From Oceanobacillus sojae (lineage in GTDB: Bacteria; Bacillota; Bacilli; Bacillales; Amphibacillaceae), in the NCBI RefSeq assembly GCF_900162665.1, contig NZ_LT727809.1, positions 183,539 to 247,538 on the forward strand: 64,000 bases of DNA, given 5' to 3'. Numbering within the stretch: the first letter of the stretch is position 1; each line of letters starts with the position of its first letter. The notes beneath the pieces are model-generated. The model had not been told where the DNA came from. It ran no database searches and was given only the letters and a program-made list of their open reading frames with translations. Position numbers and translations under genes: made by a program. Positions 17,386 to 51,394 of this stretch are shown here, in pieces.

Positions 17386-17417
17386 TTAAATAGTAATACA
17401 GACGGGTATTTTTATAA

Positions 17418-17544
17418 GAGGATATTCAAAAAGTGATATATAAGTTGATTCTTGCTCTTATTATTTGCAAAAAAAAACAGGTTTGATCCATTCGGGTGAA
17501 TCGGGACCACATACTAGCGCTTAGGGACTTTTTGAACACGCTCT
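17418..17544. repeat. Short inverted-repeat element, TTCAAAAAGT family, copy 1
   Basis: GAGGATATTCAAAAAGT at the left end is inverted as ACTTTTTGAACACGCTC at the right end. A second member with the same ends lies at 51236-51322. The inner sequence is only loosely conserved between the copies. There is no ORF. It separates ykyA from the pdh promoter. Confidence 0.6.
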
Positions 17545-27993: not shown

Positions 27994-28036
27994 AAACAGC
28001 CCCTAAACAAATTTAACGTTTAGGGGCTGTTTTTTA
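27992..28036. terminator. Bidirectional terminator between yktA and yktB
   Basis: AAAAACAGCCCCTAAAC pairs with GTTTAGGGGCTGTTTTT around a 9-nt loop. It has T runs on both strands and serves both convergent genes. Confidence 0.93.
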
Positions 28037-28657
28037 CGCGTCTCTGCTGTCTATTGCTAATTGATAAAGCGGAAGCAGCTGTTCATATGTTTCTGTTATA
28101 GCAGCGAACAGCTCCTTATCGTTTTGTAAAATAGGATCATCATAAGAAAGATGTTTACCAATTAAGAACTCGGCTTTTTTTACATCCCGGAAACGTTCTA
28201 AATCCTTTTGAGATAATTCTTCTAAAGAAATAGAATCTTTTTTCGTATGATCCAGTGAGACAACAAATGATTCTGGAAGGCTTTTTATTTCATTAAAACT
28301 GTTTAAATAGTTCTGTGCAATTTTTTGCTTGTTTGGTAATTCATAGATAAGTGCGAGCCAAATAAATAAATGGTCATCAAATAACCCAACCTGAAAATGA
28401 GGATGCTTTTTATAGCCTCTCTTGTTATCTGCAATGGCTAACCAGGTATCCTTCGGCGGATTGACGGTTCTCCGTGCGTGCTTTGCAATATGTAAATAAA
28501 GCTCTTGACCGGTCTTTTCTGATAAAAATGATACGAGATCTTCACCTATTACCTGAAATTTTGGCTGTATTCTATTCTGGATGGCTTCCATACGCTCATC
28601 TAAGCCATCGATTAAAAATGTTTGGAAATCTTCTTTTATAAAATGATGTAACTCCAC
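28034..28657 (-). CDS. yktB: UPF0637 protein YktB
   Basis: A 207-residue member of the UPF0637 family, function unknown. Conserved blocks are FLIDGLDERMEAI near residue 14, HIAKHARRTVNPPKDTWLA near 56 and RGYKKHPHFQVGLFDDHLFIW near 80 (split by me only for orientation). No signal or membrane segment. I prefer the GTG at 28657: AAAGGG lies 8 nt upstream and the N-terminus then aligns with B. subtilis YktB. The GTG at 28666 would abut the ribosome binding site. Confidence 0.9.
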   Translation of the reverse strand: MELHHFIKEDFQTFLIDGLDERMEAIQNRIQPKFQVIGEDLVSFLSEKTGQELYLHIAKHARRTVNPPKDTWLAIADNKRGYKKHPHFQVGLFDDHLFIWLALIYELPNKQKIAQNYLNSFNEIKSLPESFVVSLDHTKKDSISLEELSQKDLERFRDVKKAEFLIGKHLSYDDPILQNDKELFAAITETYEQLLPLYQLAIDSRDA

Positions 28658-28706
28658 AAATGACACCCTTTCTTTAAAATTGTGTACTTTTTTTGATATA
28701 TATAAA

Positions 28707-28949
28707 TTGAACTAAATAATTTCTCACTGGCCTGATATGTGCTCTTGATCCATTTACGCAGTATGATGAGATAAGCCGGAAATAAATTCATTTATTTCCG
28801 GCTTATCTCATCATACTGCTACCTTTCAGCGGAGCTGAAAGGCGTGTGAATTGGAAAATTCACACGAATGGATCAAATCTAGTATTGTTATAAAACAATA
28901 CGTGCAAGGATTAGCTTGTAACACGTTTTTGTTACATTTATTAGTTCAA
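28707..28949. other. Highly structured element with a four-way (cloverleaf) junction
   Basis: Nested perfect palindromes fill this spacer. An outer 9-bp stem pairs TTGAACTAA (28707-28715) with TTAGTTCAA (28941-28949). Inside, TTGATCCATT (28745-28754) pairs with AATGGATCAA (28867-28876) and encloses three back-to-back hairpins. Hairpin A (28758-28819) has a perfect 29-bp stem with loop TTCA. Hairpin B (28822-28842) has a 9-bp stem CCTTTCAGC/GCTGAAAGG. Hairpin C (28843-28866) has a 10-bp stem CGTGTGAATT/AATTCACACG with a GGAA (GNRA) loop. Further hairpins follow at 28882-28901 and 28917-28936. No T tract follows any stem, so it is not a plain terminator. It may be a structured RNA or a non-autonomous mobile element. 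No ORF lies within. Confidence 0.75.
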
Positions 28950-29156
28950 CTTCTATAAATTATTATTCTTCATCTATAGAAAGAAGTCAAGCAAGACCCC
29001 CAAAGCAGGTTTCAATTCTTTAAATAGAGGGAATAGAAAGATAACAATAAATTGTTTTTGTTATTTTAGGTGAACAATTTATTTTGTAAAACATAATATA
29101 TAGCACATACATGAAACGAAAGTAATCAATATGTTTTCAGTTTAAGGAGTGATAGG

Positions 29157-29345
29157 ATGAAATATGTTATGGAAGCTCTCCGGCGAAAAGAAGCAGAAGA
29201 ACGTCTCCCTGTCATAAAATTAGAGATTGATTATGAATTGGCAACATTGTACGAGGCTATGCAGGATGAGGATACTGTACAAATAATTAAATCCAAAGAG
29301 AGATTAAAGCAGCTTAGTGAACAATGGATGGCTCTCATGGATTAA
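29157..29345 (+). CDS. Small conserved-position protein upstream of suhB (possibly YkzI)
   Basis: A 62-residue, charged, helical protein: EALRRKEAEERLPVIKLE at the start, then DYELATLYEAMQ and a Lys/Glu-rich second helix. There is no signal, cysteine pair or membrane segment. AAGGAG lies about 10 nt before the ATG. The position between yktB and suhB is that of B. subtilis ykzI, so it may be that small protein, but I base this on position only. A hairpin terminator follows. Confidence 0.65.
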   Translation: MKYVMEALRRKEAEERLPVIKLEIDYELATLYEAMQDEDTVQIIKSKERLKQLSEQWMALMD

Positions 29346-29507: not shown

Positions 29508-30314
29508 ATGAATCAGCAACAAAGACAGGAAATTTATGAAACAGCAAAGAATTGGATATATGAAGCAGGCAGCTTCATTCGTGAGCATATGGATGAGCCG
29601 CTGGATATTGAAACAAAATCGAATCCGAATGATTTAGTAACGGTTCTTGATAAGCAGACAGAGAAATTTTTCGTAGATCATATTCATCAATATTATCCGG
29701 AACATCATATTATTGGTGAGGAAGGATATGGAGACGCATTAACAGAAGTTGATGGAACAATATGGATTATCGATCCGATAGACGGAACAATGAATTTCGT
29801 TCATCAGAAGCGGACCTTTGCCATATCGATCGGAATTTTACATAATGGCGTGGGGGAAATAGGCTTTATATATGACGTTATGGGAGATATTTTATACCAT
29901 GTTAAACGAGGAGAAGGCGCTTTTAAAAATAATACAAAATTAGCTCCGCTGGACAAGGAGAAAAAGCTGGAAGAAGCTATTGTCGGCATGAACCATTTCT
30001 GGTTATGCGAGAACAAACTGGTAGATTACCCGGTGATGCAAAAATTTGTGCGCAAGGTGCGAGGAACACGTTCGCATGGATCTGCGTCGTTGGAATTGGC
30101 GTATGTTGCTGAAGGGATTCAAGATGCTTATCTTGCTTTAAGCCTTTCACCGTGGGATGTAGCAGCAGGAATCATATTGAATGAAGAAGTTGGCGGTATT
30201 GCAGGAGATATTGACGGAAATCCTTGGAATCCTTTGGAAAGGTCATCCTCTTTAGTGGCTAATCCGGCAATTCATCGTCCTATTATAGATTTTATAAAGG
30301 AAGGAAGGAAATAA
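29508..30314 (+). CDS. suhB: Inositol monophosphatase family protein (YktC/SuhB)
   Basis: A magnesium-dependent sugar-phosphate phosphatase. The metal-site motifs are GEEGYG near residue 71, IDPIDGTMNFVH near 89 and SPWDVAAGIILNEEVGG near 214. The 268 residues fit B. subtilis YktC, which acts on inositol monophosphate and related esters in vitro. TTTGGAGG precedes the ATG. Its stop codon abuts the stop of the convergent ylaF-like gene, and its terminator lies inside that gene's 3' end. Confidence 0.92.
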   Translation: MNQQQRQEIYETAKNWIYEAGSFIREHMDEPLDIETKSNPNDLVTVLDKQTEKFFVDHIHQYYPEHHIIGEEGYGDALTEVDGTIWIIDPIDGTMNFVHQKRTFAISIGILHNGVGEIGFIYDVMGDILYHVKRGEGAFKNNTKLAPLDKEKKLEEAIVGMNHFWLCENKLVDYPVMQKFVRKVRGTRSHGSASLELAYVAEGIQDAYLALSLSPWDVAAGIILNEEVGGIAGDIDGNPWNPLERSSSLVANPAIHRPIIDFIKEGRK

Positions 30315-49800: not shown

Positions 49801-50143
49801 TCAGAATGGACAGCTTGTTTCTTTATTTTTTAAAATAGAAGACTTACAGCCGGCTGCACTTGTATAAATTGTATATAAAAATAAAAAAACCTGCAGTCAA
49901 AACTACTGCAGGTGCTTTTATTTTTAAATAAAAATAAAAGGCTAAAGGGAGAGGAGAAACCGGATGAAGAGCTTATGGGGAAGAATAAGCCTTCTTCCGT
50001 TTCAACTAAATCATGTTTAGCTGAATCATTATATTATTATAGACAAAGCAAAAAATAATATACATATCAAAATAAAATAATTTGCTAAAGCTGAGAATCG
50101 TGGTAGACTATTGACGAGCCAAAAAGAGCTGAGGTGACCTGGA
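49801..50143. other. Spacer between ylbG and rsmD
   Basis: The spacer contains the ylbG terminator and about 220 bp of AT-rich DNA that should carry the rsmD-coaD promoter. A 90-codon frame overlapping ylbG in another phase is a shadow. No other structure was seen. Confidence 0.4.
49887..49925 (+). terminator. Terminator after ylbG
   Basis: AACCTGCAGT pairs with ACTGCAGGT around seven bases, followed by GCTTTTATTTTT. Confidence 0.85.
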
Positions 50144-51196: not shown

Positions 51197-51235
51197 AAAA
51201 GTTGGATGCATGATTTCTGTTTATTACATATAATT

Positions 51236-51322
51236 GTGTGTTCAAAAAGTAGCTAAATTAGAAGCAAGAAGGTCAACGCAGAGATTCGCCGCTAATCATT
51301 TGGGAACTTTTTGAACATCCTC
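51236..51322. repeat. Short inverted-repeat element, TTCAAAAAGT family, copy 2
   Basis: TGTGTTCAAAAAGT at the left is inverted as ACTTTTTGAACATCC at the right. The ends match the 17418-17544 element; the inside is shorter and loosely similar. It lies just after coaD and, read as RNA, forms a terminal stem of about 11 bp. Confidence 0.6.
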
Positions 51323-51394
51323 TATAAGCTAAAACTTACTGACCTGAAAAAATTGCAATTCATACAGTAGTTATATTTATTCATGTTTTACAAT

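What the first reader, a model, noticed from the sequence alone, without database searches (positions are those of the whole stretch)
28707..28949. Cloverleaf-like element with nested perfect stems, including a 29-bp hairpin
The spacer between yktB and the suhB side folds, by base pairing seen directly, into a closed four-way junction. The closing stem is TTGATCCATT/AATGGATCAA. Three hairpins sit inside with only 3, 2, 0 and 0 unpaired bases between stems. One hairpin has 29 perfect base pairs and one a GNRA loop. An outer 9-bp stem and two more hairpins complete the unit. Such compact packing is not expected for a terminator, and no T tract follows. It could be an undescribed structured RNA, a folded single-strand substrate of a transposase or recombinase, or a REP/MITE-type element. 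The family identity is not known to me.
Basis: partly seen in the sequence, partly recalled or inferred. Interest (0 to 1): 0.75.

Follow-up and report, generated by a model that had tools for sequence, protein, structure and literature searches.

The report
Mobile palindromic DNA with four-way core
The spacer holds a small transposon-like DNA element whose core of about 143 bases folds into a cross of four stems; relatives occur in many genera of one bacterial order, and the pairing seems to be kept at the level of DNA rather than RNA.

Summary
The fold is real (z -14) and is one copy of an interspersed repeat: 28 loci here, several truncated; relatives in 64 of 397 genomes and 22 of 135 genera of the order (E up to 0.001; 50 genomes, 16 genera at 1e-5). 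The window copy is a transposition product: six relatives have the spacer without it, and TATA flanks it on both sides. The 68 copies parsed as intact share closing stem P0, a ~30-bp hairpin H1 of changing sequence, and sequence-conserved hairpins H2 and H3. In 43 cores, 44 of 51 pairs change on both sides. G·T mispairs do not exceed A·C (46 vs 44); own tRNAs show 50 vs 0. Arms change together and one copy is inverted in place. This suggests upkeep as DNA, not RNA. The core lies inside three kinds of ends with different target duplications (TATA; 3 bp; 8 bp, perfect in 18 of 28), or without recognised ends. Most likely a MITE-like family with a DNA four-way core. No Rfam match; no autonomous transposase found; function unproven.

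The parts
28697..28700 (.). target-site TATA, left copy
   Evidence: empty sites in G019/G025 read GATATAGAWTATTATTC; exact duplication length ambiguous in the TA run
   Evidence: (I2); same kind of end in other own-genome copies and in G136/G286 copies
28745..28754 (+). P0 closing stem, 5' arm
28758..28819 (+). H1: 29-30 bp hairpin; variable sequence, narrow length range in the family
28822..28842 (+). H2: 9-bp hairpin, sequence conserved
28843..28866 (+). H3: 10-bp hairpin, partly conserved sequence, strong covariation
28867..28876 (+). P0 closing stem, 3' arm
28882..28901 (+). subterminal hairpin GTATTGTT/AACAATAC; a related GTATT...AATAC is seen in several type-A and type-B copies of this genome
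28917..28936 (+). second subterminal hairpin
28941..28957 (-). right terminal inverted repeat, type A, ending in the right TATA copy (28954-28957)
17417..17544 (-). second, decayed 128-bp copy of the same family in the window, with type-B ends and ATA flanks

Best explanation
It is a non-autonomous, MITE-like mobile DNA element. SHOWN: repetition, terminal repeats, target duplications, empty sites, covariation of the stems, strand-symmetric mispairs, one clear inversion in place. INFERRED: it is moved in trans by a DDE transposase that recognises its ends. Its core of about 143 nt forms a four-way junction as DNA (hairpins on single strands at the fork, or a cruciform in negatively supercoiled DNA). 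Replication template switching in the folded state copies one arm onto the other, so the stems stay nearly perfect while their sequences drift, and sometimes the inside inverts. The core travels as cargo inside at least three kinds of ends and persists where no ends are recognisable. The sequence conservation of H2, H3 and P0 suggests that a protein reads the folded core; that last step is a guess.
For: Repeat: 28 own-genome loci. Mobility: empty site in 6 of 6 evaluable relatives of 12 searched, TATA flanks; TIR-C elements with perfect 8-bp duplications in 18 of 28, one mismatch in 5; TIR-B elements with identical 3-bp flanks in 22 of 27 (8 of 11 with this core). Architecture: 68 of 90 distinct copies passed an intactness filter (P0 score, segment 60-74 nt); their P0-to-H2 segment is 63-70 nt, 26 of them 67. 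Covariation: 44 of 51 pairs in 43 cores. DNA level: G.T 46 vs A.C 44 in P0+H1+H3, 22 vs 18 on 40 pair columns of A2, tRNA control 50 vs 0; at orthologous sites 29 two-sided against 27 one-sided changes; one-base insertion in both H1 arms, L169 vs L171; inversion between collinear flanks, L173 vs L169. Arm homogenisation and spacer inversion by template switching: abstracts of PMC8604942 and PMC8794818.
Against: No autonomous IS with any of the three ends was found. P0 arms lie about 113 nt apart, so correcting them needs the whole fold. PMC8794818 reports template switching in RNA genes, so such signatures do not by themselves exclude an RNA. H2/H3 conservation is not explained by hairpin correction alone. 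One-sided changes at orthologous sites (27) are nearly as many as two-sided ones (29), and 13 of them are neither G.T nor A.C. No transcript or protein-binding data.
Confidence: 0.72

Rival explanations
1. A structured non-coding RNA gene or cis-regulator (four-way-junction RNA) that was spread by transposons and is selected as RNA.
For: Strong covariation, sequence-conserved H2/H3, narrow H1 length, copies without recognised ends shared by up to four species at one site; few sites between convergent genes (3 of 63).
Against: G.T does not exceed A.C; the element lies in either orientation to its neighbours (25 ++ and 16 -- of 63 sites); one copy is inverted in place; no Rfam match at gathering score (E-value scans gave only sub-threshold hits).
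Confidence: 0.13
2. The cross is a folded single-strand DNA (or cruciform) ligand of a specific host or element protein, selected as such, for example for synapsis, fork targeting or insulation. (A finer version of the best explanation, not exclusive with it.)
For: Conserved junction geometry and H2/H3 sequence with free H1 sequence; strand symmetry; divergent over convergent spacers, 19 vs 3 against 11 vs 19 in other gaps of the same loci (p 0.0005), which would fit negative supercoiling.
Against: No protein candidate; shortened forms recur with target duplications.
Confidence: 0.35
3. No function in the core: an ordinary MITE or relic whose palindromes are kept only by mutational hairpin correction. 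(Also a finer version of the best explanation.)
For: Template-switch-like changes; decayed and shortened copies are common.
Against: Does not explain why H2/H3 keep their sequence while H1 does not, nor why copies without recognised ends keep P0 paired in several genera, nor one core inside three kinds of ends.
Confidence: 0.3
4. Chance cluster of palindromes or a terminator.
For: None found.
Against: z -14, homologues with compensatory changes, no T tract.
Confidence: 0.01

Closest known systems
Bacterial MITEs (review PMC10969869, three passages read)
   Same: Short, no ORF, terminal inverted repeats, direct repeats, intergenic, strong predicted stem-loops
   Different: One core recurs inside three kinds of ends; no parent IS found; four-way core shared across genera
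BOX / RUP elements of Streptococcus pneumoniae (recalled; named in PMC2267715, passages read)
   Same: Interspersed, intergenic repeats; BOX recalled as modular
   Different: Other host; sequences not compared here
bcr1 of the Bacillus cereus group (recalled; title of its paper seen in PMC2267715)
   Same: Chromosomal repeat of a Bacillus group with mobile-element traits and predicted structure
   Different: Its title calls it specific to the B. cereus group; sequence not compared here
Bhal-1 family of Bacillus halodurans (PMC2267715, Table 3 passage)
   Same: Stem-loop repeat, 74 bp, 36 copies, mostly intergenic; might be part of this family
   Different: Its sequences are in a supplement that was not open to me, so identity is unresolved
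Template-switch hairpin correction (PMC8794818, PMC8604942, abstracts)
   Same: Homogenised arms, spacer inversion, compensatory changes from one event
   Different: Reported there for RNA genes and yeast coding DNA; a mobile family is not mentioned in the abstracts

Membership tests
MITE | terminal inverted repeats | tested here: met
   types A, B and C; many copies in other genera show none
MITE | target-site duplication and empty sites | tested here: met
   empty sites tested for the window copy only
MITE | multi-copy, no coding capacity | tested here: met
   copies; no ORF of 60 aa or more over 28707-28949 in the list
MITE | ends shared with an autonomous IS | tested here: inconclusive
   no IS with ends A, B or C found in the own genome's PF01609 families or the loci examined
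Rfam RNA family | match above gathering score | tested here: not met
   none over the element in the window or in 20 relatives' loci, where the 5 hits are neighbouring riboswitches and a CRISPR repeat
Structured RNA under selection | G.U wobble tolerated over A.C | tested here: not met
   46 vs 44, 22 vs 18
REP/RAYT | short tagged hairpins with an associated RAYT transposase | not tested
   size and ends differ from what I recall; RAYT not searched
Integron attC | folded hairpin with conserved core-site boxes | not tested
   considered from recall only
IS6-family derivative (TIR C) | 8-bp duplication and an IS6 transposase between the same ends | tested here: inconclusive
   8-bp duplications met; PF13610 gave 5 hits in 4 of 8 genomes, one above cut-off (own genome), none with paired ends in its locus

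The most novel reading that the evidence does not exclude
The core is a genetic entity in its own right: a DNA fold (four-way junction with a length-fixed, sequence-free arm of about 30 bp) that is recognised by a conserved Bacillales protein, hitchhikes between unrelated transposon ends, and has been kept at conserved promoter-side sites after the ends were lost.
Probability: 0.22. Interest if true: 0.85.

Novelty: new variant of a known kind. Interest (0 to 1): 0.6.

Why it matters
A covarying structure is usually read as proof of a functional RNA. This family looks like a strong covariation signal arising at the DNA level, visible in dozens of copies, at orthologous sites and in an inversion in place, so it is a natural test bed for template-switch hairpin correction and a caution for RNA discovery. 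It also shows one structured core inside transposon-like elements with three different ends and target duplications, which raises the question of what the core does for them or for the host.

Tried and rejected
Terminator: no T tract. Known RNA: Rfam gathering scans and E-value scans; the latter gave sub-threshold hits only, mostly microRNA hairpins on H1. Own-genome PF01609 transposases: I looked at the ends of their three groups and none is A, B or C. PF13610: no paired ends in the loci; one search skipped loci under 2500 bases when it looked for IS-sized pairs. Viral contigs with the type-B end: none of the 13 stretches has a second end within four mismatches; taken as chance. Plasmids and phages: no match for the window element; two relatives' cores, no plasmid match. 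H1 as a guide: three H1 arms of the many were searched in phages; matches were weak (2 records, best E about 1; none; 17 records, best listed E 0.09, 9 records not listed). Not pursued. Phylum-wide hits outside the order (L290-L292) lack the junction by eye. Literature: searches listed no paper that I recognised as describing this family; I read passages of two papers, one abstract, and one abstract with the start of its introduction. The H2 mispair count was left out because the parser misregistered H2 in some lineages (G.T 14, A.C 11, other 20 there). Mispairs that are neither G.T nor A.C were 15, 63 and 4 in P0, H1 and H3 and 50 on A2. One search, meant to show the neighbours of 12 loci, stopped with an error at the sixth. 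One search prints 17 of 28 for the 8-bp duplications; the rows count 18.

Full report
OBSERVATION. The same cross forms on either DNA strand. The neighbours are yktB-like (28034-28666, minus) and a short ORF before suhB-like (29157-29345, 29508-30314, plus) (gene names from the finding and recall).

IT IS A REPEAT. DNA search of the own genome gave 73 pieces at E up to 10. I merged these by hand into 28 loci (list; sequences), several of them truncated; other weak pieces that I looked at were not counted. Copies fall into two end types. Type A has TATAAGTTGAACTAAA-like ends, as in the window. Type B has AGAGCGTGTTCAAAAAGT-like ends. Both carry the same inner core, in a long form (P0, H1, H2, H3) or a short form (P0 directly around H3), besides decayed copies. 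The type-B end (one mismatch allowed) occurs 66 times in the genome against 1 for the reversed-pattern control and also bounds a second modular repeat family with a different inside.

IT MOVED. A 2.3-kb query around the site was searched in 12 same-genus genomes. In G025, G019, G008 and G014 the two flanks abut. G002 and G018 run through the same spacer without the element. The other 6 of 12 matched only parts in and near the genes and cannot be judged. The empty site in G019 and G025 reads GATATAGAWTATTATTC and the filled one has TATA on both sides, so the duplication is TATA, its exact length blurred by the TA run.

RELATIVES. An exact scan of one genome per species (84,980 species) with the signature TACCTTTCARCNNNGYTGAAAGGCGTGTGAA found 10 contigs, in Gracilibacillus timonensis, Niallia endozanthoxylica, Bacillus sp. 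V59.32b, Bacillus sp. CECT 9360, Alkalihalobacillus sp. YIM B00296 and Robertmurraya massiliosenegalensis. A covariance model of H2+H3 found matches at E up to 0.001 in 64 of 397 genomes of the order, 22 of 135 genera; 50 genomes in 16 genera reach 1e-5. The weakest were not inspected. I parsed the full junction in copies from 10 of these genera. At most 14 candidates per genome were scored, so copy numbers are lower bounds. Genome G130 has 124 P0 arms within one mismatch, control 0. In a phylum sample 5 of 398 genomes hit; two belong to the order and the other three loci lack the junction. I have no evidence for the family outside this order.

ARCHITECTURE. From the loci then fetched, 90 distinct copies were found. 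Of these, 68 passed an intactness filter (P0 score at least 7, P0-to-H2 segment 60-74 nt); the other 22 are truncated, decayed, or have no P0 that the script could find. Within the 68 the segment is 63-70 nt, 26 of them exactly 67. In 43 of the 68 (after removing near-duplicates) RNAalifold recovers the same cross, and 44 of 51 pairs have two-sided changes. H2 and H3 are conserved in sequence, P0 is often GATTTTTGGCTCATT/AATGAGCCAAAAATC, and H1 differs between lineages except for a tip of the kind AAA...TTT.

DNA, NOT RNA. If one RNA strand were selected, G.U should exceed A.C. In P0, H1 and H3 of the 68 copies G.T is 46 and A.C 44 (p 0.92). On 40 pair columns of the 43-core alignment (P0, H1 tip, H2, H3) the figures are 22 and 18 of 1715 lettered cells, with 50 other mispairs. 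In 38 distinct tRNAs of the own genome they are 50 and 0 of 828 pairs; ARAGORN may hide non-standard pairs, so this control is rough. At orthologous sites (11 comparisons, several sharing a sequence) 29 pairs changed on both sides and stayed Watson-Crick; 27 changed on one side (G.T 9, A.C 5, other 13); 8 changed otherwise and 35 were unpaired in both. L169 and L171 differ by a one-base insertion present in both H1 arms. In L173 the H2-H3-P0 part is inverted between flanks collinear with L169. In G050 two of seven copies (L046, L047) appear to have the asymmetric inner part of H1 reversed (my reading). Arm homogenisation and spacer inversion are what template switching between inverted repeats produces (abstract of PMC8604942). 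PMC8794818 (abstract and start of the introduction) reports such events in RNA genes, so they do not exclude an RNA; the wobble test is what speaks against it. The inference is that the hairpins fold as DNA in vivo and are corrected there.

ENDS. Type C ends (GGCTATGTTA or GGCTCTGTTA) surround the core in several genera. Of 28 such elements 18 have perfect 8-bp duplications, 5 have one mismatch and 5 have more. Most are 189-198 bp; others are shorter. In G130 a form with P0 directly around H3 recurs at five loci (L340-L344) and a form lacking most of H1 and one arm of H2 at L337-L339 and, by its spacing, L336; L342, L336 and L339 have perfect duplications. Shortening after insertion cannot be excluded for a single copy, but the same form at several sites suggests that shortened elements transpose. 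Type B: identical 3-bp flanks in 22 of 27 elements, 8 of 11 with this core, usually inside T-NNN-A. Type A: TATA. Different duplication lengths imply different transposases (established knowledge of IS families). Many copies, notably in genera g38, g26 and g24, show no convincing terminal repeat. Several sites are shared by up to four species. Neighbours of five such loci look like trigger factor/ClpX, Rho, alcohol dehydrogenase/glucose-6-phosphate isomerase, a decarboxylase and a cation-efflux gene (my reading, which stopped early; no family search was run).

CONTEXT. Loci with enough flank were clustered into 69 distinct sites by flank similarity; 63 had a callable gene on both sides: 41 co-directional (25 with the element's strand, 16 against), 19 divergent, 3 convergent. 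Other gaps in the same loci were 40 co-directional, 11 divergent and 19 convergent; convergent versus divergent differs with p 0.0005. The ORF calls are crude. Divergent spacers are where negative supercoiling, which favours cruciforms, is expected (inference).

MECHANISM AND STATUS. Shown: mobile, repeated, multi-ended, covarying, strand-symmetric in its mispairs, inverted once in place. Inferred: mobilisation in trans, DNA folding, template-switch upkeep. Guessed: a protein ligand. Class: MITE-like by ends, duplications, copy number and lack of ORF, with the autonomous partner not found. The core shared by different ends, and its presence without them, is the unusual part.

Noticed in passing
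own genome, L064, L068, L070-L073, L075, L076, L079-L082, L087, L092: A second modular repeat family (159-353 bp) uses the same type-B ends; 12 of 14 parsed end pairs have identical 3-bp flanks (one pair spans two adjacent elements), and hairpin-rich modules appear inserted into a 159-bp base form.
   Followed up: partly
window 51233-51323: A 91-bp relic with type-B ends and ATA flanks, looking like a deletion derivative of the second family.
   Followed up: partly
L056 and L037: At what looks like one orthologous site the own genome keeps joined type-A-like ends (a footprint), while G019 keeps a larger remnant of the element.
   Followed up: no
L054 (own genome C17:1142013-1142906): A different, long hairpin-rich sequence with partial type-A-like ends.
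   Followed up: no
L041 versus L034, L039, L043 (genome G050): A TGCAGTCAC motif sits beside the right P0 arm in three copies and, reversed, beside the left arm in L041, as if the core had flipped inside its site (read).
   Followed up: no
window 49879-50002: ylbH leader RNA (RF00516), the only Rfam family above its gathering score in the window.
   Followed up: no
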